A DNA stretch of 8,510 bases from NCBI GenBank assembly GCA_034717985.1, contig JAYEMH010000042.1, positions 1-8,510 on the forward strand, given 5' to 3'. The DNA comes from JAYEMH01 sp034717985 [NCBI: Candidatus Ratteibacteria bacterium]. Its GTDB lineage: Bacteria; CAZDME01; JAYEMH01. This document shows positions 110 to 8,510 of this stretch, one piece after another (the stretch's first letter is position 1; every line of letters begins with the position of its first letter). The translations under genes were made by a program, and so were the position numbers. The notes under the pieces were generated by a model, which saw only the letters and a program-made list of their open reading frames with translations, was not told the origin of the DNA and did no database searches.

Positions 110-1375
110 ATGATATTGTTAGAGAGAATATTGAGGCAGAATCCTTGGTGGCAAGGGAAGGAAATCAAAGAGATTAAAAATTATAAGGAAAGATTTCTTT
201 TAAAAGAGATTGAAAAGTATTTTAATAACCCTCAGATAATTGCGATTTTAGGCCTGCGGCGAACAGGCAAAAGTGTTTTGCTTGCTCAAATTATTAAAAG
301 ATTTCTTTTGAAATCTCAGCCCAAGAGGATTCTTTATTTTTCTTTTGATGAGATATTGGGGAAAGACCCGGAAATATTAGAGAAAATATTAGAAATATAC
401 GAGAACGAGATTTTGAAAGAGGATTTAGAAAATGTTTGCATATTTTTCGATGAGATAAACCATTTAAAGGACTGGCAGATAATTCTTAAGCGATTTTATG
501 ATTTAAAAAGAAAAATTAAATTTTTTATTTCCGGTTCGTCAAGTATCTATCTTAAAAAATCTAAAGAGAGTTTAGCCGGAAGAATCTATGAATTCAATCT
601 TTATCCTTTGAATTTCAAAGAATATCTTTATTTAAAAGGGGTTGATGTAAAGAATGTAGCCTTACAGGCGCTTGTTCTTAAAAAGGAGTTAAACAGATAT
701 TTTCTTTCCGGCTCTCTGCCGGAGATTATTCAGGAGGTTGATTTTTCGAAGATAAAAAAATATATCAATTCTCTTATAGATAAGATAGCATTTTATGACA
801 TTCCCAAGGTTTATGAAATAAATGAACCCGAAGTTTTAAAAATGATTATTTCTTTCATTGCCCAAAGACCGGGGATGACTTTAGATTATCAAAATTTAGC
901 TTCCAGTCTAAAAGTAAGTTATCAAACCATTTCAAAATATGTCGGATATTTAGAAAAGGCATTTTTGATAAAACTACTTTATAATTTTAGAGGAAGTCCA
1001 ATTGCCCGGGCAAGAAAACTTAAAAAGGCTTATTTAGGCTCTATAAATTTGGCTTCAGGATTTTTAGACTCGGAACAGGAACTTTTGGGAAATTTATCTT
1101 TGTTGGCAGAAAACTTGGTTTGTCTTCATTTAGACGCTAAATGGTTTTGGAAAAAATATACAGAGATTGATTTCTATCACAAGGATATTCCTGTTGAGGT
1201 AAAATATACAGAAACAAAGCCAGATATTAAGAACAGTTTTTTAGCGGCTAAACATTTAAGAGCAAAGAGGATTACTATAGTGACAAAAGATACCGAGAAA
1301 GAAGAGGAACGAAATGGCATAAAAATTGTTTATCTGCCTTTATGGAAATTTCTTCTTTTCGATGGACAGAAATAA
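110..1375 (+). CDS. AAA ATPase with C-terminal DUF4143 domain, function unknown
   Basis: A 421-residue predicted P-loop ATPase of the AAA_14/DUF4143 group. The Walker A motif is GLRRTGKS (residues 48-55). Walker B is VCIFFDEI (109-116, with D114 and E115). A sensor-like FFISGSSS lies at 138-145, followed by the family's LAGR...LYPLNFKEYL stretch (155-173) and a GSLPE motif (201-205). Residues 254-290 resemble a winged helix. The C-terminus carries a PD-(D/E)XK-like pattern, E334, D354 and E363-V-K365, so a degenerate or active nuclease fold is possible. The ATG is 7 nt behind AGGAGG, which fixes the start. The length is normal for the family and I see no break. The gene is far more AT-rich than its neighbours (13 G/C in 60 bases at 181-240), which suggests transfer. 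The family is common as stand-alone copies with no settled role; no partner gene is visible here. Confidence 0.9.
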   Translation: MILLERILRQNPWWQGKEIKEIKNYKERFLLKEIEKYFNNPQIIAILGLRRTGKSVLLAQIIKRFLLKSQPKRILYFSFDEILGKDPEILEKILEIYENEILKEDLENVCIFFDEINHLKDWQIILKRFYDLKRKIKFFISGSSSIYLKKSKESLAGRIYEFNLYPLNFKEYLYLKGVDVKNVALQALVLKKELNRYFLSGSLPEIIQEVDFSKIKKYINSLIDKIAFYDIPKVYEINEPEVLKMIISFIAQRPGMTLDYQNLASSLKVSYQTISKYVGYLEKAFLIKLLYNFRGSPIARARKLKKAYLGSINLASGFLDSEQELLGNLSLLAENLVCLHLDAKWFWKKYTEIDFYHKDIPVEVKYTETKPDIKNSFLAAKHLRAKRITIVTKDTEKEEERNGIKIVYLPLWKFLLFDGQK

Positions 1376-1434: not shown

Positions 1435-1476
1435 ACGTCCTCTTAAGAAGCTTTCCCAAAAGTGAGACAACCCGAG

Positions 1477-4014
1477 ATGAAAAATACTTACCCCTTTAAA
1501 AAAATTGAGAATAAATGGCAGAAAAAATGGGAACAGGAACCTCTTTTCAAGGAGAGAAGCGTCTCCGAGAAGAGAAAGAAATATTATCTCCTGGAGATGT
1601 TTCCCTATCCTTCCGGAAGAATCCATATGGGGCATGTCCGAAATTACAGCATCGGTGATGTGGTGGCTAGGCACAAGGTAATGAATCGATTTAATCTCCT
1701 TCATCCGATGGGCTGGGACGCCTTTGGTCTGCCGGCCGAGAATGCGGCTCTGAAAGAAAAAGTACATCCGGCCATCTGGACGGATAAAAACATTTCATAT
1801 ATGCGGGGGCAGCTTAAAAAAATGGGATTTGCCTATGACTGGAGCCGTGAGGTCAGCACCGCCAGCCCCGACTATTACCGCTGGAATCAATGGATTTTCT
1901 TAAAGCTTTATGAGCGGGGATTAGCCTATCAGAAAATGGCGGCCGTTAACTGGTGTCCCCAATGTACCACCGTTTTAGCCAATGAACAGGTAGAAGGGGG
2001 GAATTGCTGGCGCTGCGGGACGGCGGTAGAATCAAAAGAAATTAAACAGTGGTTTTTTAAAATTACCTCTTATGCCGAAGCCTTGCTTAATGATTTATCC
2101 GGCTTGAACGGCTGGCCGGAGAAGGTAAAGATAATGCAGGCGAACTGGATTGGACGCAGTGCCGGGGTAGAGATTTGCTTTAAAATTGCCGGGGAAGACG
2201 AAACCATTCCTGTTTTCACCACCCGTCAGGATACTATTTTCGGGGCGACTTATTTAGTCCTTTCAGCCGGGCATTCTTTATCGGCCAAATTGGTTAAAGG
2301 GACAAAGATAGAAAAGAAAGCTTTAGAATTTATAAATCAGGTAAGACGGGAAAAGCTGAATAAAACCGCTCAGACGGAGGTAGAAAAAAGAGGGATTTTT
2401 ACGGGGCGTTACGCCATTAATCCGGTCAATCAGGAGAAGATTCCTATCTGGATTGCTAATTATATCGTAATGGAATATGGAACCGGGGCGGTGATGGCGG
2501 TCCCCGCTCATGACCAGCGGGATTTTGAATTTGCCCTAAAGTATAAACTGCCGATACGGCTGGTTATCCAGAATGGGAATAACAGCTTGGCTCTGGAAGC
2601 AATGCCGGAGGCCTATGAGGGTGAAGGGAATCTTGTGAATTCGGAAAAGTTTTCCGGGATGGACAGCTCCGCGGCTAAAAATAAAATTGCTCTCTGGATG
2701 GAGGAGAAAAAAATAGGGAAACGAAAGATAAATTATCGTCTTAAAGATTGGGGAATTTCCCGGCAGCGTTACTGGGGGACGCCGATTCCGATAATTTATT
2801 GTGAGAAGTGCGGCACCATGCCGGCAGCGGAGAAAGATTTGCCGGTGGCTTTGCCGAAGAAAATTGAGTTTGCCTATAAAAAAGGAGTATCCCCCTTAGT
2901 GGCTGATGAAAAATTCTATTTTACTCCTTGTCCAAAATGCGGCCAAAAAGCCCGCCGGGAAATTGATACTATGGATACCTTTGTTGATTCCTCCTGGTAT
3001 TTTTTAAGATTTACCGATTCAAAGGCTCAAAAATCTCTTTTTTCTCCCGGAGAAGCTAATTACTGGATGCCGGTTGACCAGTATATCGGCGGCGTGGAAC
3101 ACGCCATTATGCATCTTCTATACGCCCGGTTTATGCATAAATTCCTTTCTGATATTGGAATGGTAGAGACGCGGGAGCCTTTTTCTAATTTGCTGACGCA
3201 GGGTATGGTCATTAAGGATGGGGCTAAAATGTCTAAGTCAAAAGGGAATGTAGTTGACCCGGATGATATTATTGATAAATATGGAGCGGATACCGCCCGG
3301 CTCTTTATTCTTTTTGCCGCCCCGCCGGAGCAGGATTTGGAATGGAGTGACCAGGGCATAAAAGGTGCTTTCCGGTTTTTAAATAGAGTTTGGCGATTGG
3401 TTAATTTTCCCTGCCGCCGGGAGGTTCCGGAAGATATAGCTAAGAATTTAGAAGGTGTCCTTAAGCGGAAACTTCACCAGACAATTAAGAAAGTTACCGA
3501 CGATATTGAAAGGTTTCATTTCAATACTGCCATCAGCGCTATTATGGAACTGGTAAATCTTATCTTCAGCTTTTCGTTTGAGCGTCCGAAACAAGGTTCG
3601 GTTTTACCTGAGTCTCCCATAATGGCCGAATCTTTAAGAACGGTAGTGCTTCTCCTTTTTCCTTTTGTTCCCCATATTGCTGCGGAAATGTGGGAGATTT
3701 TAGGGGAAAAAGAGACTGTTTCCCGACAATTCTGGCCGGAATTTAAATCGGAACTTGCCCGGGAAGAAAAAGTTACTCTGATAGTGCAGGTTAACGGCAA
3801 GGTGCGGGACAAATTGGAGATTAAAGCCGGGCTGAGTGAAGAAGAAATAAAAGCCAAAGCCTTGACTCAGGAACGGGTCAGGAAATGGCTGGCTAATCAG
3901 GAAATTGTCAGAACGGTTATTGTCCGCGGGAAATTGGTCAATCTGGTGGTTAAACCAGGACAACAACCAAACAATGACCAAGAAATAAAAGATACAATAA
4001 CCAAGAAACAATAA
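1477..4014 (+). CDS. leuS: Leucyl-tRNA synthetase (class I), bacterial type
   Basis: Charges tRNA-Leu with leucine using ATP, in the cytoplasm. Numbered from the ATG at 1477 (845 residues): HMGH signature 50-53; zinc module C160-x2-C163 with C177-x2-C180; editing-domain TTRQDT 248-253 and the aspartates D346 and D349 of the VPAHDQRDFEFA stretch; further CxxC pairs at 442-445 and 485-488; KMSKS loop 584-588; helical anticodon-binding region about 625-760; C-terminal VNGKVRDK from 772. All catalytic and editing signatures are present. An in-frame GTG at 1462 would add five residues. I prefer the ATG because the family begins close to the Y-x-F-K-x-I-E-x-K-W motif, but neither start has a strong Shine-Dalgarno (AAGAAG at 1445-1450 would fit the GTG, loosely). 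Family members such as the E. coli enzyme end near the NLVV motif (822-825). Here about 20 more residues follow, the last 16 encoded by heptanucleotide repeats. Confidence 0.97.
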   Translation: MKNTYPFKKIENKWQKKWEQEPLFKERSVSEKRKKYYLLEMFPYPSGRIHMGHVRNYSIGDVVARHKVMNRFNLLHPMGWDAFGLPAENAALKEKVHPAIWTDKNISYMRGQLKKMGFAYDWSREVSTASPDYYRWNQWIFLKLYERGLAYQKMAAVNWCPQCTTVLANEQVEGGNCWRCGTAVESKEIKQWFFKITSYAEALLNDLSGLNGWPEKVKIMQANWIGRSAGVEICFKIAGEDETIPVFTTRQDTIFGATYLVLSAGHSLSAKLVKGTKIEKKALEFINQVRREKLNKTAQTEVEKRGIFTGRYAINPVNQEKIPIWIANYIVMEYGTGAVMAVPAHDQRDFEFALKYKLPIRLVIQNGNNSLALEAMPEAYEGEGNLVNSEKFSGMDSSAAKNKIALWMEEKKIGKRKINYRLKDWGISRQRYWGTPIPIIYCEKCGTMPAAEKDLPVALPKKIEFAYKKGVSPLVADEKFYFTPCPKCGQKARREIDTMDTFVDSSWYFLRFTDSKAQKSLFSPGEANYWMPVDQYIGGVEHAIMHLLYARFMHKFLSDIGMVETREPFSNLLTQGMVIKDGAKMSKSKGNVVDPDDIIDKYGADTARLFILFAAPPEQDLEWSDQGIKGAFRFLNRVWRLVNFPCRREVPEDIAKNLEGVLKRKLHQTIKKVTDDIERFHFNTAISAIMELVNLIFSFSFERPKQGSVLPESPIMAESLRTVVLLLFPFVPHIAAEMWEILGEKETVSRQFWPEFKSELAREEKVTLIVQVNGKVRDKLEIKAGLSEEEIKAKALTQERVRKWLANQEIVRTVIVRGKLVNLVVKPGQQPNNDQEIKDTITKKQ

Positions 4015-4057
4015 CCAAATAATAACCAATACCCAATGACCAAGAAACAATAGCCAA
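3964..4057 (+). repeat. Degenerate TAACCAA-type heptanucleotide array across the leuS stop
   Basis: Heptads, most ending CAA, can be read as CAACCAA (3964-3970), TGACCAA (3975), GAAATAA (3982), GATACAA (3991), TAACCAA (3998), GAAACAA (4005), TAACCAA (4012), TAACCAA (4023), TACCCAA (4030), TGACCAA (4037), GAAACAA (4044) and TAGCCAA (4051-4057). Interruptions are ACAA at 3971-3974, AA at 3989-3990 and ATAA at 4019-4022. A higher-order 21-nt unit of three heptads occurs at 3998-4018 and again at 4037-4057 with 19 of 21 identical. The leuS stop TAA is the first three bases of the heptad at 4012. No spacer and repeat alternation is present, so this is not CRISPR. Confidence 0.85.
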
Positions 4058-4117
4058 ACAAAAATAATGAGAGAATTTGATTTAAAAAAAAGAACAATAA
4101 TGTTGGGTAATTGGTTA
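4023..4117. repeat. Inverted repeat made of heptads (14-bp arms) in the leuS-lon gap
   Basis: The two heptads TAACCAA-TACCCAA at 4023-4036 recur as reverse complement at 4103-4117 (TTGGGTA followed by ATTGGTTA). Pairing is complete apart from one extra A in the second arm. The arms enclose 66 nt (4037-4102), which include the last three heptads of the array. In RNA this could form a 14-bp stem. No T tract follows, so it is not an ordinary intrinsic terminator. Confidence 0.75.
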
Positions 4118-4149
4118 GACCCTTCCTTTAAAAGGAACAAGAAGGTCTA
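4116..4149. repeat. Compact palindromic hairpin in the leuS-lon gap
   Basis: Two alternative folds are visible. One is a nearly perfect palindrome, TTCCTTT (4123-4129) with AAAGGAA (4131-4137) around one central A. The other is a longer stem, TAGACC + TTC (4116-4121 and 4123-4125, C4122 bulged) with GAAGGTCTA (4141-4149). The first bases overlap the end of the heptad-made inverted repeat. No poly-T tail follows on either strand, so terminator function is not supported; an RNA-processing or stability hairpin is possible. Confidence 0.55.
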
Positions 4150-4180
4150 TCCTTTAGGATTATTGAATATTGGTGATTGT

Positions 4181-4215
4181 TTGTATCTTGTATCTTGTAA
4201 CTTGTATCTTGTAAG
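4181..4215 (+). repeat. TTGTATC-type heptanucleotide tandem array upstream of lon
   Basis: Five consecutive 7-nt units with no interruption: TTGTATC, TTGTATC, TTGTAAC, TTGTATC and TTGTAAG. The sequence differs from the TAACCAA array about 125 nt upstream, but the period is the same. Flanking text (TATTGGT near 4169-4174 and 4222-4228) resembles reverse-complement TAACCAA heptads. The rest of the 4015-4276 gap contains no recognisable RNA gene, and its only small ORF is doubtful. Confidence 0.85.
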
Positions 4216-4276
4216 TTAATTATTGGTAATTGAATAGATATTTTTGACAGAACCCAAAATGATAACAGGATAAAAA

Positions 4277-6640
4277 ATGGATATTGGCTCAAAGATAGAA
4301 AGAAACAGAAATAAAATTAAAGCCAGGACTATCTTTCCCCTCCTTCCGGTTCGGGATATTGTCGTTTTTCCCTATATGGTTGTTCCCCTCCTGGTTGGGC
4401 GTCCCAAATCAGTTGAAGCTTTAGAGGAGGCGATGGACAAAGACCGTTTATTAGGACTGGTTACTCAGAAGGAAATTCGGATTGATGAACCGAAGATTCA
4501 GGATATCTATCAAATCGGAACATTAGGAGAGATTTTGCAATTTGCCCGCCTGCCTGACGGCTCAATTAAAATTTTAGTTGAGGGAATTTGCCGCTTGAAA
4601 ATCAAGGAGTTTATCTCCAATAAGAAATTTTTCCAAGTCATCGCTGATACGGAAGAGGAAGAAGCAAAAGAAGTTAATTTAGAAACGGTAGCTTTAATGC
4701 GGACGGCCGCTTCTCAATTTGAAAATTACGTTAAGCTTAATGCCCGTCTCGTTCCGGAGACGGCCGGTTCTGTTAGCAATATTAAATACCCGGGGCAGTT
4801 AGCCGATTCTATTTCTACCCATCTTCAGATTAAACTGGAAGACAAACAGAAAATTCTGGGGATATTTGACCCGCTGGCCAGGCTGAAAAAAATCGGGGGG
4901 ATTTTAAGCGCGGAGACCGAGATCCTTCACATTGAGAAAAAAATTCAGGGAAAGGTCCGCCATCATATTGAAAAAACCCAGAAAGAGTATTATCTCCAGG
5001 AGCAAATGAAGGCAATTCAGGATGAATTAGGAAAGAAAGACGGGCAAAACGAAAATCAGGAGTTAAGAAAACAAATTCTTGAGGCAAAGATGACTCCGGA
5101 AGCTGAAGAAAAATCGTTGAAGGAGTTAGGCCGTCTTGAAAGGATGCTTCCGGTTTCTCCGGAAGCCGGCGTGGTAAGAAATTACCTGGATTGGCTGATA
5201 TCTCTTCCCTGGTCAAAAATGACCGAGGATAAACTTGACATCAATGCGGTAGAAAAGATTTTAGAAGAAGACCACTACGGGTTAAAAAAAGTTAAGGAAA
5301 GAATTCTGGAGTATTTAGCCGTAAGGAAACTGGTCAAAAAAATGAAGGGTCCGATTCTTTGTTTTGTCGGACCTCCCGGAGTGGGAAAAACATCTCTGGC
5401 TAAATCTATTGCCCGGGCTTTAGGAAGAAATTTTGTTCGTGTTTCTTTGGGGGGTGTCCGTGACGAAGCTGAAATCCGGGGGCATCGGCGCACCTATATC
5501 GGCTCTCTTCCGGGTAGAATTGTTCAGTCAATAAAAAAGGCAAAATCGAGAAATCCGGTTTTTCTTCTTGATGAGGTTGACAAGATGAGTGTAGATTTTA
5601 GAGGTGATCCCTCGGCGGCGCTTTTGGAAGTGCTGGATCCGGAGCAGAATCATAGCTTTAGCGACCATTATTTAGAGGTGGATTTTGACCTTTCCGATAC
5701 AATGTTTATCACCACGGCTAATCTCCAGCTCAATATTCCTCTTCCCCTTCAGGACCGGATGGAAATTATCAAATTATCCGGGTATACGGAATGGGAAAAA
5801 CTTAAGATTGCCGAACTTTTTCTTATTCCTAAACAACTGGCGGCCAATGGCCTGGATTCAGAGAAGCTGACTATTTCCTCCAAGGCGATTTTAACCGTTA
5901 TTCGCAGCTATACGCGGGAGGCCGGGGTGAGAAATTTGGAAAGGGAGATTGCCTCTCTTTGCCGGAAAACCGCTAAAGAGCTGGTTAGTAACGGACACAA
6001 AGAAATAATAAAAATAACCAATCAAAACCTGTCAAAATTTCTGGGGCATCCTCGTTTTATTCTCAGCAAAGGAACCGAAAAAGATGAAATTGGCGTTGCC
6101 CAGGGATTGGCCTGGACCGAAGTGGGCGGAGAGGTAATGAATATAGAGGTTTCTATTCTCAAAGGGAGAAGGAATTTAACCCTGACCGGCAAACTGGGCG
6201 AGGTAATGCGTGAATCAGCTCAGGCGGCTTTGAGTTATACCCGCTCCAAAGCAAAACAGTTAGGCCTGGATGAAAATTTTTATCGTTTTATCGATATTCA
6301 TATTCACATTCCGGAAGGGGCTATTGCCAAAGACGGACCCTCTGCCGGAATTACTATGGCCACCGCCCTAATTTCGGCTTTGACCCGGAGAAAGGTATCC
6401 AAGCAGGCGGCGATGACCGGGGAGATAACCCTGAGGGGGAAGGTTCTGCCTATCGGCGGGGTGAAAGCCAAGGTTTTAGCCGCTCACCGCTCAAAAGTAA
6501 AGAAAATTATTCTGCCTAAAGAGAACAAAAAAGATTTAGAAGAAATTCCGGTTGAAATTCGCCGGGAGATGAATTTTGTTTTAGTTGAGCATATGGATGA
6601 AGTCTTGAAGGAAGCGTTGCTAAACAGCAAGAAAGGATAA
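4277..6640 (+). CDS. lon: ATP-dependent protease Lon (LonA type, S16 family)
   Basis: Cytoplasmic ATP-driven protease that degrades misfolded and regulatory proteins; known LonA proteins act as hexamers. The 787 residues match the usual length (E. coli Lon has 784). Layout: N-terminal substrate-binding domain (about 18-210, with the family's [11 protein letters not shown] near 22-32); helical linker (about 210-310); AAA+ module with Walker A GPPGVGKT (365-372), Walker [10 protein letters not shown] (428-436), sensor-1 N482, arginine finger R494 and sensor-2 GVRNLERE (550-557, R552); then the protease domain with Ser689 in KDGPSAG and Lys732 in GGVKAK forming the catalytic dyad, 43 residues apart as in E. 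coli (S679/K722). The ATG sits 6 nt behind AGGA (4267-4270), which supports this start; an ATG at 4259 stops after four codons. No internal break. No heat-shock (CIRCE-like) operator was found upstream. Confidence 0.98.
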
Positions 6641-6645
6641 AGGCA

Positions 6646-7800
6646 ATGAAAAAGTTTTATCTTTTGACCCCCGGCCCGACCCCGGTTCCCGAAGGAGCCA
6701 GAGAGATTATGTCCAACCCCATAATTCACCATCGCACCAGGGAATTCCAGGAAATTCTTAGTGAAGTTATTGAGGGGCTTAAATATATTTTTCAGACGAA
6801 AAACGATGTTTTGCTTTTTTCTTCCTCGGGAACAGGAGCGATGGAAGCTGTTGTGGCTAATCTTTTGTCTTCCGGTGATAAAGCCCTGGTTGTTCGCGGG
6901 GGGAAATTTGGCGAACGCTGGGGGGAACTTACCCAGGCATACGGAATAGAAACAATTTTTATTGACGTGAACTGGGGAGATGCGGCTGAGCCCGGAGAAA
7001 TTCAAAAGATTCTAAAAGCCAATTTGGATATTAAAGCGGTTTTTATTACCCATTGCGAAACCTCTACCGGCGTCGTCAACGACGTGGAAGCCATTGCTAA
7101 GGTTGTCTCTTCCACTAAAGCTCTTTTAGCCGTTGATGCCATCAGCAGTCTGGCTTCCATTCCTTTAAAAACCGATAAATGGATGGTTGATGTCGTCGTG
7201 GCCGGTTCGCAAAAAGGTCTGATGGTTCCTCCCGGCCTGTCTTTTGTCAGTGTTAGCTCTAAAGCCTGGGATATGGCGGAAAAATCAACCCTGCCCAAAT
7301 ATTATTTTTCTTTTAAACAAGCCCGTAAAGCTCAGGAAAAAGCAAATACCCCCTGGACGCCGGCGATAACTCTGGTTCTGGCTCTCCGGGAGACTTTAAA
7401 GATGCTCAAAAATGAGGGATTGGAACAGGTTTTCTTAAGACACCGGCGCTTGGCCGAAGCGACCCGTCAGGCGGCTTTGGCCATGGGACTGGAATTATTA
7501 GCCCCAAAATCACCGGCTATCAGCGTTACGGCCATCAAACTTCCCGAGGGTATCGATGGGGCGGCGCTGGTTAAAAATTTGCGAAAAAAGCATGGTATCT
7601 GGGTGGCCGGGGGCCAGGCCCAGCTTAAAGGTAAAATTATCAGGATTGCCCACATGGGCTATATAAAGCAATTCGAGCTGCTGGAGGCAATTTCGGCTAT
7701 AGAGAAGGAATTGAGTGAATTGGGTTACCAGCTGGAATCCGGAATTGGCCGGAAAGCTGCGGAGGAGATTCTGAGTCAGTCCATAGTCGACAGTCGATAG
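6646..7800 (+). CDS. Class V PLP-dependent aminotransferase (alanine-glyoxylate / serine-pyruvate type)
   Basis: Cytoplasmic fold-type I aminotransferase, 384 residues. N-terminal GPTPVP (10-15) and HHRTREF (28-34), cofactor-phosphate loop SGTGA (61-65), HCETSTG (136-142), cofactor-binding D164 in VDAISS, Schiff-base lysine K190 in AGSQKGL, substrate-gate NTPWTP (234-239) and the carboxylate-binding arginine R333 in IIRIAHMG. These place it in the group containing alanine-glyoxylate and serine-pyruvate aminotransferases; the exact substrate cannot be read from sequence. With serA next downstream it may act as the phosphoserine-forming or another serine/glyoxylate transaminase (inference). The start lies 5 nt after the lon stop, 8 nt behind AAAGGA (6632-6637) inside the lon end, so translation is probably coupled and the two form one transcript. 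The last seven residues and the stop fall in a heptanucleotide array. Confidence 0.93.
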   Translation: MKKFYLLTPGPTPVPEGAREIMSNPIIHHRTREFQEILSEVIEGLKYIFQTKNDVLLFSSSGTGAMEAVVANLLSSGDKALVVRGGKFGERWGELTQAYGIETIFIDVNWGDAAEPGEIQKILKANLDIKAVFITHCETSTGVVNDVEAIAKVVSSTKALLAVDAISSLASIPLKTDKWMVDVVVAGSQKGLMVPPGLSFVSVSSKAWDMAEKSTLPKYYFSFKQARKAQEKANTPWTPAITLVLALRETLKMLKNEGLEQVFLRHRRLAEATRQAALAMGLELLAPKSPAISVTAIKLPEGIDGAALVKNLRKKHGIWVAGGQAQLKGKIIRIAHMGYIKQFELLEAISAIEKELSELGYQLESGIGRKAAEEILSQSIVDSR

Positions 7801-7811
7801 ACCATAGATAA
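7777..7811 (+). repeat. Heptanucleotide array across the aminotransferase stop
   Basis: Read in the phase CAGTCCA (7777), TAGTCGA (7784), CAGTCGA (7791), TAGACCA (7798), TAGATAA (7805-7811). The stop codon TAG at 7798-7800 is the first three bases of a heptad, and codons 378-384 (Gln-Ser-Ile-Val-Asp-Ser-Arg) are array-encoded. In the other phase these units are the reverse complement of the TRTRGWC family found at 7954-8020. Confidence 0.75.
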
Positions 7812-7981
7812 AAGCAGACAAAAAATAGTTCATAAAAGATAAAAATCAGTAATCCGGAAAAGGGCGAAGATTGATAGTCAAAGGCAGAAATTTCCCTTCC
7901 AGCATTTAAGGTTCGGCTCTGCGGGTTTGATATTTTAGATTTTTTGTTTTTTCTATGGACTATAGTCTGTAGTCTATGGAC
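7779..7981. repeat. Long imperfect inverted repeat (35-nt arms) between the aminotransferase and serA
   Basis: The left arm 7779-7813 is four heptads (GTCCATA, GTCGACA, GTCGATA, GACCATA) plus GATAAAA. The right arm 7947-7981 is TTTTTTC plus TATGGAC, TATAGTC, TGTAGTC, TATGGAC. Reverse-complementing the left arm aligns heptad by heptad with the right arm: I count 23 of 28 identical in the heptads and 29 of 35 over the full arms. Between them lie 133 nt (7814-7946) of unrecognised sequence, AT-rich at both ends. The overall size of about 203 nt with terminal inverted repeats would suit a miniature element or a large RNA hairpin, but no target-site duplication is visible. Confidence 0.7.
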
Positions 7982-8020
7982 TAAAATAGGACTGTGGTCT
8001 ATAGACTATGGTTCGTGGAC
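7954..8020 (+). repeat. TRTRGWC-type heptanucleotide array upstream of serA
   Basis: Nine heptads: TATGGAC (7954), TATAGTC (7961), TGTAGTC (7968), TATGGAC (7975), ATAGGAC (7986), TGTGGTC (7993), TATAGAC (8000), TATGGTT (8007) and CGTGGAC (8014-8020), with one 4-nt interruption TAAA at 7982-7985. Adjacent units create self-complementary stretches such as GACTATAGTC (7958-7967). The array ends 4 nt before the Shine-Dalgarno of serA, so it lies in the serA leader if transcription starts upstream of it. Confidence 0.85.
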
Positions 8021-8024
8021 TAAA

Positions 8025-8030
8025 AGGAGG
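8025..8030 (+). promoter_or_regulatory. Shine-Dalgarno site that decides the serA start
   Basis: A full AGGAGG lies 10 nt before the ATG at 8041. An earlier in-frame ATG at 8032 is only 1 nt behind it, too close for initiation, so 8041 is preferred. The protein then begins MKILVSDPLA, as expected for the family. A TTGATA at 7927-7932 resembles a -35, but no convincing -10 follows, so I cannot place the serA promoter. Confidence 0.7.
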
Positions 8031-8040
8031 GATGGAAAAA

Positions 8041-8510
8041 ATGAAAATTTTGGTCAGTGACCCTTTGGCTAAACCGGGTCTGGAAATTCTTCGTAAAACG
8101 AAGGGCTGTCAGATTGACGAAAAGCCCAAGCTTTCCCCCGAAGAGTTGAAAAAGATTATCAAGGATTATGACGGTTTAATTATTCGAAGCGGCACCAGGG
8201 TGACCAAGGAAATTATTGAGGCGGCAGAAAATTTAAAAATTATCGGCCGGGCCGGAGTCGGTTTAGATAACGTGGATTTAGCGGAAGCGACCAAAAAAGG
8301 CATTATTGTTATGAATACGCCGGGCGGAAATACAATTTCTACCGCCGAGCACGCTATAAGTTTGATTTTAGCCCTGGCCAGGAATATCCCCCAGGCTTAT
8401 GTTTCTCTTAAAGAGAAAAAATGGGAACGGAAAAAATATACCGGCGTGCAGCTTTATGGCAAAACCCTGGGAATTATCGGTATGGGCCGAATTGGAACCG
8501 AGGTAGCCAG
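8041..8510 (+). CDS. serA: D-3-phosphoglycerate dehydrogenase, N-terminal part (cut by window end)
   Basis: First enzyme of phosphorylated serine synthesis: oxidises 3-phosphoglycerate to 3-phosphohydroxypyruvate with NAD, in the cytoplasm. The 156 complete codons show the N-terminal half of the substrate domain (MKILVSDPLA at the start, LIIRSGTRVT at 46-55, GRAGVGLDNVD 69-79, NTPGGNTISTAEHA 92-105) and the opening of the Rossmann domain, LYGKTLGIIGMGRIG (138-152), with the GxGxxG dinucleotide loop at 147-152. The catalytic Arg, Glu and His and any ACT regulatory domain would lie beyond 8510, so the long or short SerA form cannot be decided. Other D-2-hydroxyacid dehydrogenases share this fold, but the SGTRVT and GLDNVD stretches are typical of SerA. 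The frame is open to the window edge. It follows a class V aminotransferase after a 240-nt repeat-rich gap with its own strong Shine-Dalgarno. Confidence 0.93.
   Translation, partial: MKILVSDPLAKPGLEILRKTKGCQIDEKPKLSPEELKKIIKDYDGLIIRSGTRVTKEIIEAAENLKIIGRAGVGLDNVDLAEATKKGIIVMNTPGGNTISTAEHAISLILALARNIPQAYVSLKEKKWERKKYTGVQLYGKTLGIIGMGRIGTEVA

What the first reader, a model, noticed from the sequence alone, without database searches (positions are those of the whole stretch)
3964..8020. Three heptanucleotide repeat families fill the intergenic gaps
Separate arrays of period 7 occur at 3964-4057 (TAACCAA-like), 4181-4215 (TTGTATC-like) and 7954-8020 (TRTRGWC-like, with an inverted copy at 7779-7806). 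The sequences differ but the period is the same, and two arrays carry one 4-nt A/T-rich interruption (ATAA at 4019, TAAA at 7982). Short tandem heptanucleotide repeats are known from cyanobacteria, but several families within 4 kb, tied to gene ends, look unusual. A shared 7-nt period across unrelated sequences suggests a common generating mechanism (slippage, or a templated enzyme with a 7-nt step) rather than shared ancestry. That mechanism is speculation.
Basis: partly seen in the sequence, partly recalled or inferred. Interest (0 to 1): 0.7.

Follow-up and report, generated by a model that had tools for sequence, protein, structure and literature searches.

The report
Dispersed DNA hairpins with seven-base arms
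The seven-base repeats between these bacterial genes are the two arms of long hairpin-shaped DNA elements that recur in many related genomes, and they help turn the old puzzle of why bacterial repeats so often have seven-base units into something testable.

Summary
The period-7 arrays are real: in both gaps lag 7 stands out (z 5.2 and 5.1, 0 of 1000 Markov sequences). The "three families" are better read as two quasi-palindromes: array A (3964-4057) with B (about 4161-4240), and D (7777-7813) with C (7946-8020), are inverted mates. In 1.70 Mb from 18 genomes plus the window (16 of the 18 chosen for repeat hits) period 7 gave 162 arrays, period 8 18. Genomes hold many heptads, and arrays drift through different heptads in phase. 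47 of 217 arrays have a strong inverted partner within 200 bp (control 4.3%), 25 of them in one genome. Families are dispersed inside genomes and shared between them: CTATRGW 1118 matches in 93 of 384 Omnitrophota genomes, reversed control 278 in 64; one 24-mer of the A/B family is exact in 11 of 13 chosen genomes. Heptad repeats in bacteria are known; heptad-armed dispersed hairpins, with low divergence at two orthologous sites, look like a new variant. Mover and function are unproven.

The parts
3964..4057 (+). Element 1, left arm (array A): heptads of the form AAnnnnC (AATAACC, AAGAAAC, AATGACC) with one 4-nt step near 4019; supplies the leuS stop codon (4012-4014)
   Evidence: similar phrases in other genomes
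4058..4160 (.). Element 1, spacer/loop; holds a small hairpin about 4114-4152 (TTAGACCC...GGTCTATCC)
   Evidence: a similar spacer hairpin in L283 by eye
4161..4240 (-). Element 1, right arm (array B and flanks): TTGTATC/TTGGTAA heptads, inverted mate of array A
   Evidence: 4015-4037 aligns inverted with 4161-4183, 18 Watson-Crick pairs of 22; profile match inverted 0.50, direct 0.32; DNA fold z -4.70, 0 of 200 shuffles
7777..7813 (-). Element 2, left arm (array D): AGWCSAY-type heptads, overlaps the 3' end of the aminotransferase gene and supplies its stop codon (7798-7800)
7814..7945 (.). Element 2, spacer/loop
7946..8020 (+). Element 2, right arm (array C): CTRTRGW heptads with one 4-nt step near 7982
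   Evidence: 30 of 36 aligned positions pair with array D; family search; DNA fold z -4.30, 0 of 200 shuffles
1462..4014 (+). leuS (leucyl-tRNA synthetase); its last codons (tail ...NNDQEIKDTITKKQ) lie in array A
   Evidence: TIGR00396 1097 bits, cut-off 548; ORF
4277..6640 (+). lon protease gene
   Evidence: TIGR00763 and PRK10787 over cut-off
6646..7800 (+). PLP aminotransferase gene (best model BhcA, 353 bits, below its cut-off of 650)
   Evidence: relatives
8041..8510 (+). serA-like phosphoglycerate dehydrogenase gene, cut by the window end
   Evidence: TIGR01327 223.5 bits on the N-terminal fragment, below the cut-off of 454

Best explanation
The window holds two members of a class of dispersed quasi-palindromic DNA elements, roughly 120-280 bp long, whose arms are degenerate heptad arrays in inverted orientation around a spacer. 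Shown: the arms, their inverted pairing, the shared period, many copies per genome in G151 and G230, and families shared between species. Inferred: arms grow and shrink in 7-nt steps by slipped-strand replication, which the hairpin probably favours; point changes make the heptad drift in phase, so one period carries many sequences; whole elements spread to new gaps by copying (transposition or recombination, agent unknown) and are tolerated mainly away from gene starts. Low divergence at two orthologous sites suggests that some copies have gained a function.
For: Period: 162 arrays of period 7 in 1.70 Mb, next non-multiple period 8 with 18, others 10 or fewer (periods 4-30); perfect repeats of 3 or more copies, units 4-14: unit 7 38, unit 4 24, unit 6 5, unit 14 2, unit 5 1. 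Drift in phase: in 21 arrays of 70 nt or more similarity is 0.77 at lag 7 and falls steadily to 0.56 at lag 49, off-period 0.20-0.29; one arm of a G151 element reads GTCAATT, GTCTATG, GTCAACA, GATAACT, GTTCACT, GTTTGCG, GTTCACG, AATTACG in phase. Inverted pairs: 47 of 217 arrays inverted, 12 direct; control 4.3% and 6.6%. Dispersal: 55 further places in its own genome for a G151 query and 46 for a G230 query, lower bounds; copies aligned. Sharing: CTATRGW 1118 matches in 93 of 384 genomes, 28 genomes with ten or more, reversed control 278 in 64, 5 with ten or more; 24-mer exact in 11 of 13 chosen genomes, reversed control 0. Step: 7-nt indels 16 of 132 in arrays, 5 of 138 outside, p 0.012; a 21-nt difference L010/L011, a 14-nt gap L100/L106 in a poor alignment. 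Lineage-specific gain: the aminotransferase-serA gap is kept in 43 of 58 relatives, with an array at threshold in 1. Low divergence: 2 of 117 and 6 of 144 in two elements, 340 of 2707 and 460 of 2486 elsewhere; third codon positions 0.23-0.40.
Against: 170 of 217 arrays have no strong inverted partner within 200 bp; none reach the threshold in 9 of the 15 genomes listed (72 arrays), and 25 of the 47 lie in G230, though weaker hairpins occur in some of those genomes. The reversed control also matches 64 genomes, so presence alone says little. No target duplication was seen by eye and no mobilising gene was found. Unit order is only weakly mirrored between arms (39 of 51 above the permuted median, mean z 0.75). 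The 7-nt excess is modest after removing overlapping loci, and 4-nt indels (11 of 132, 5 of 138, p 0.12) are not significant. Gene-end preference is modest: an ORF stop inside 29 of 149 noncoding arrays (0.195) against 0.126 for random noncoding placement, p 0.023, and no stop/start preference by distance (62 against 60). The low divergence rests on two loci found through one 24-mer, with element limits set by me after seeing the alignment; recombination between the species could mimic it.
Confidence: 0.57

Rival explanations
1. Plain degenerate microsatellites: each array arose on the spot by 7-nt replication slippage, as proposed for heptamers from the DNA segment that contacts the polymerase; there is no element.
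For: Period 7 dominates in loci of several phyla; 7-, 14- and 21-nt length differences; most arrays lack a strong mate. The slippage idea for heptamers is in print (passages of PMC4692102, citing a 2007 study that I did not see).
Against: Inverted mates of the same family, dispersed copies with shared spacers, exact 24-mers in 11 chosen genomes and k-mer sharing above reversed controls are not expected from independent slippage.
Confidence: 0.17
2. RNA elements: the transcribed hairpins act as terminators, attenuators or RNase barriers after genes.
For: Arrays avoid ORF starts (8 of 149 against 0.125 expected, p 0.007) and mildly favour stops, are depleted in divergent gaps (5 against 16.0 expected by length, p 0.002), and two orthologous copies differ little.
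Against: In 63 co-directional hairpins G.U and A.C mismatches on the sense strand are equal (56 and 60); no terminator-like site in either window gap; no Rfam family at gathering score in the window.
Confidence: 0.12
3. Binding arrays for a nucleic-acid-binding protein that reads a short core every 7 nt, as proposed for TAACTGA repeats.
For: Mismatches are unevenly spread over the seven phases in 40 of 138 arrays at p below 0.05, about 7 expected; low divergence at two loci.
Against: Many unrelated cores in one genome would need many proteins or one without sequence preference; no binding data.
Confidence: 0.08
4. A templated enzyme with a 7-nt step writes the arrays.
For: Strict period with changing sequence.
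Against: Neighbouring units resemble each other more than distant ones, which fits copying of the neighbour rather than of a fixed template. No candidate gene was searched for.
Confidence: 0.03

Closest known systems
Heptameric repeats of Xanthomonas and Nostoc (GGGNATC, GGGGAYT); cyanobacterial short tandem repeats ('STRR', name recalled)
   Same: Intergenic heptad arrays in large numbers, variable length, some Xanthomonas sites in close convergent pairs (passages of PMC4692102)
   Different: That paper treats one G-rich heptad type; here many mostly A/T-rich families per genome, in-phase drift, and arms of dispersed hairpins with spacers
TAACTGA direct repeats of Beggiatoaceae, Cyanobacteria and Bacteroidetes
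   Same: Heptad arrays near gene ends, patchy sharing between lineages, two Cyanothece strains differing mostly in 7-nt increments, mixed with other heptamers in Microcystis (abstract and sections 10 and 24 of PMC4679880)
   Different: One fixed heptad as direct repeats, in the main genome mostly just before start codons; here drifting heptads, inverted pairs, starts avoided
Geobacter metallireducens multicopy sequences with heptanucleotide repeats
   Same: Multicopy elements with four or five tandem heptads; one class is drawn as a strand-switching hairpin (passages of PMC2700814)
   Different: Other sequences, read there as regulator sites or RNA elements, no in-phase drift described in the passages seen
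REP / REPIN palindromic repeats
   Same: Dispersed palindromes, often in opposite orientation, in co-directional and convergent gaps (abstract of PMC3733652)
   Different: Arms here are tandem heptads; no sign of a RAYT link; GTAG/CGTC tags not tested

Membership tests
Bacterial heptanucleotide tandem repeats | Tandem units of 7 nt, mainly noncoding, in excess over background | tested here: met
Bacterial heptanucleotide tandem repeats | Length varies between relatives in steps of one unit | tested here: inconclusive
   7-nt indels 16 of 132 in arrays, 5 of 138 outside, p 0.012; 21 nt, 14 nt in a poor alignment; no strain-level data
REP/REPIN | Short palindromes, often as inverted dimers, dispersed in gaps | tested here: met
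   for the paired minority of arrays
REP/REPIN | Associated RAYT (Y1 transposase) gene flanked by the repeats | tested here: not met
   2 arrays in 95,267 bases around the 30 Y1 loci held, 12.9 per 100 kb in the mainly repeat-rich stretches; the background is not matched by genome
REP/REPIN | GTAG or CGTC tag at one end | not tested
   no call
MITE | Terminal inverted repeats with defined ends | tested here: inconclusive
   35 matches from 30 loci share AAATAAC at the left end with no consensus beyond about -8; right ends vary
MITE | Target site duplication | tested here: inconclusive
   none seen by eye at a few copies; no systematic test
Intrinsic terminator | GC-containing hairpin followed by a T run | tested here: not met
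   0 sites in 3900-4300 and 0 in 7700-8060

The most novel reading that the evidence does not exclude
Heptad-armed hairpins are an abundant class of dispersed DNA element in many uncultivated bacteria, with lineage-specific vocabularies, made by a 7-nt copying step common to bacteria and partly domesticated: some copies evolve as slowly as the slowest codon positions. The 7-nt step and the hairpin would be two sides of one process, slippage on a folded strand, which would explain both the period and the inverted arms.
Probability: 0.28. Interest if true: 0.8.

Novelty: new variant of a known kind. Interest (0 to 1): 0.55.

Why it matters
A heptamer excess in bacteria has been noted in print with only a short suggestion for its cause. 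Here one phylum shows over 200 arrays in 1.7 Mb with many sequences, one period and inverted arms. That makes the question "why seven" testable by comparing families, strains and repair-deficient laboratory hosts. If the low divergence at orthologous sites holds in general, a large unannotated class of functional intergenic elements exists in uncultivated bacteria.

Tried and rejected
Heptads as frame-independent stop signals (7 = 2x3+1): stop codons in arrays 1314 against 1160 in reversed controls, strands with stops in all three frames 138 against 123 of 438; too weak to be general. Mobilisation by Y1 transposases: counts are 7, 3, 1, 6, 4, 4, 4, 3, 2, 9 in ten array-rich genomes and 5, 3, 0, 1, 5, 12 in six others, and their surroundings are poor in arrays, though against an unmatched background. 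RNA pairing selection seen as G.U excess: not found. Strict mirror copying of arms: weak signal only. Genus-level relatives of G230 and G151: none held besides themselves. L010/L011 second site as conservation evidence: dropped, because the whole stretch around it is about 98% identical. Rfam: no family at gathering score in the window.

Counts mended on re-reading: the first indel count (30 of 187 and 7 of 177) held overlapping loci and is replaced; the 4-nt excess then lost significance. The first stop-codon comparison (40 of 219 against 8.1) used an unfair shifted control; against random noncoding placement the excess is modest. The first adjacency count (32 of 46) skipped 12 loci on the other strand; one search has 43 of 58.

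Dropped rows: two G002 stretches (8.7 kb) were left out of the 1.70 Mb table; 2 of 219 arrays had no comparator; 65 of 219 arrays of the CTATRGW type (crude pattern filter) were dropped on purpose. part b used stretches of 8 kb or more (211 of 219 arrays).
Full report
WHAT IS THERE. The window carries leuS, lon, a PLP aminotransferase and a serA-like gene in one direction. The closest relatives of the aminotransferase are in Candidatus Omnitrophota (58-61% identity), so the window is most likely from that phylum; no genome for it is held. In the gaps leuS-lon and aminotransferase-serA, period 7 is in clear excess: 0 of 1000 Markov sequences reach the lag-7 identity of either region.

TWO PAIRED ELEMENTS. 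Arrays A and B are inverted mates (4015-4037 with 4161-4183, 18 of 22 pairing), as are D and C (7777-7813 with 7946-7982, 30 of 36). Folded as single-stranded DNA both regions beat all 200 shuffles (z -4.70 and -4.30). Array A runs into leuS and array D into the aminotransferase gene; in both cases the stop codon lies inside the array.

THE PERIOD IS GENERAL. In the first 29 sequences (28 loci of several phyla and the window; periods 3-21) period 7 gave 21 arrays (8 of them in L004), period 12 6, period 8 5, with 14 and 21 as multiples. In 1.70 Mb from 18 genomes and the window, 16 of the 18 chosen for repeat hits, period 7 gave 162 arrays (114 mostly noncoding), 14 78, 21 45, 28 25, period 8 18, all others 10 or fewer; the Markov-2 noncoding control gave one period-7 array in three replicates. 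Densities differ: 54 in 313 kb of G230, 0 in 80 kb of G193. One genome holds many unrelated heptads.

DRIFT IN PHASE. In 21 arrays of at least 70 nt, similarity is 0.77 one unit away and 0.56 seven units away. In a G151 element one arm passes through eight different heptads without losing phase, and a 4-nt A/T-rich step (TTAT) sits on the other side. Seven-nt indels are (16 and 5, p 0.012), but the cases are not independent.

DISPERSED AND SHARED. A G151 query finds 55 further places and a G230 query 46 in their own genomes, with only 40 candidates scored. The CTATRGW family (arrays C and D) has 1118 matches in 93 of 384 Omnitrophota genomes; the reversed pattern has 278 in 64, because it is itself a heptad family in a few genomes such as G014. 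In the phylum of L005 (Candidatus Scalindua; Planctomycetota by recall) it matches 7 of 119 genomes, with 7 for the control by my count, and in the phylum of L010 (Cloacimonadota) 1 of 117, with about 22 for the control. So the family is a feature of Omnitrophota among the three groups. The AAGATAC family (arrays A and B), with up to 3 mismatches, matches 65 of 384, control 27 by my count; CAATAACCAAGATACAAGATACAA is exact in 11 of 13 genomes chosen from that list, reversed control 0 in all 13. Thirty-five matches from 30 loci share a left end AAATAAC and lose consensus about eight bases further out. Arrays of different genomes share more k-mers than reversed controls, also without CTATRGW arrays (14-mers 53 against 6).

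INVERTED PAIRING. 47 of 217 arrays have an inverted partner within 200 bp against 12 with a direct one (controls 4.3% and 6.6%). 25 of the 47 are in G230, and 9 of the 15 genomes listed have none at this threshold. A laxer search lists 79 hairpins, some in those genomes too.

LINEAGE-SPECIFIC GAIN. The aminotransferase-serA order is kept in 43 of 58 relatives, 40 of the 43 gaps being 118 nt or less; only one (L040) has an array at threshold, with a different heptad (TTCAGCC); L008 shows a weaker GGTTATT/AATAACC hairpin by eye. At one orthologous gap G230 carries a TAGCGNN hairpin and G357 an AATAACC one (one flank by BLAST, the other by eye).

LOW DIVERGENCE. In two orthologous element pairs (L263/L274, L261/L275) the element differs at 2 of 117 and 6 of 144 positions, against 340 of 2707 and 460 of 2486 beyond 100-nt flanks (p 6e-5 and 9e-7). 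The fastest codon position differs at 0.23-0.40, the slowest at 0.03-0.08. Both pairs were found through a 24-mer and the element limits are mine, so this is suggestive only.

PLACE. By midpoint, arrays are depleted in divergent gaps (5 against 16.0 expected by length, p 0.002) and not nearer to stops than to starts in co-directional gaps (62 and 60). Against random noncoding placement they hold an ORF stop somewhat more often (29 of 149, 0.195 against 0.126, p 0.023) and an ORF start less often (8 of 149, 0.054 against 0.125, p 0.007).

MECHANISM. Best reading: dispersed quasi-palindromes whose arms change by 7-nt slippage and point mutation. Shown: structure, period, dispersal, sharing. Weakly shown: step size. 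Inferred: slippage as cause, the hairpin as its promoter, copying as the way of spread. The mover is unknown; Y1 transposases show no link. The mismatch test gives no sign of selection on RNA pairing (56 G.U, 60 A.C).

KNOWN WORK. A heptamer excess in many bacteria, with a polymerase-based slippage idea, is in print (passages of PMC4692102). TAACTGA repeats, with 7-nt differences between two strains and mixed heptamers in Microcystis, are in print (sections read). Geobacter elements with heptads are in print (passages). Among the rows listed by the searches (listings and abstract starts; several lists were capped) I saw no paper on heptad arrays in Omnitrophota or on heptad-armed dispersed hairpins; the main text of the phylum survey PMC10066038 holds none of six search terms. 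The library lacks most subscription papers, so earlier description elsewhere is possible.

VERDICT. Observation confirmed, interpretation half right, a new variant of a known kind.

Noticed in passing
window 4114-4152; L283 (spacer): A small hairpin in the spacer of element 1 (GGTTAGACCCTTCCTTTAAAAGG...GGTCTATCC) resembles one in a G223 element of the same family (GGTTAGGGCCTTCCTTTAAAGG...CCCTACC), by eye, which hints at homology of whole elements.
   Followed up: partly
window 4237-4255; L251, L259, L267, L272, L278, L282: Several copies of the AATAACC family are followed outside the arm by ATATTTTTGACARWACC-like sequence, which looks like a -35 box or a further part of the element.
   Followed up: no
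G014, G299, G372, G246, G164: The reversed control pattern (GRTATCW heptads) is itself an abundant heptad family in some genomes, 44+47 matches in G014.
   Followed up: no
L261:2330-2400 vs L275: A GGACGAA-type heptad hairpin after what looks like a tRNA gene in G332 has no clear counterpart in the orthologous gap of G274; L275 in turn has insertions absent from L261, one of 52 bp inside an element loop.
   Followed up: partly
L079:3693-3888 and 9342-9541: In the genome behind an Actinomycetota record a 200-bp repeat (91% identical copies) carries GATGGCN heptads plus GAGCGAACGGAGTGAGCG-like palindromes.
   Followed up: no
window 110-1375: ORF of 421 aa that looks like an AAA ATPase of the DUF4143 type (recalled), with no NCBIfam match.
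   Followed up: no
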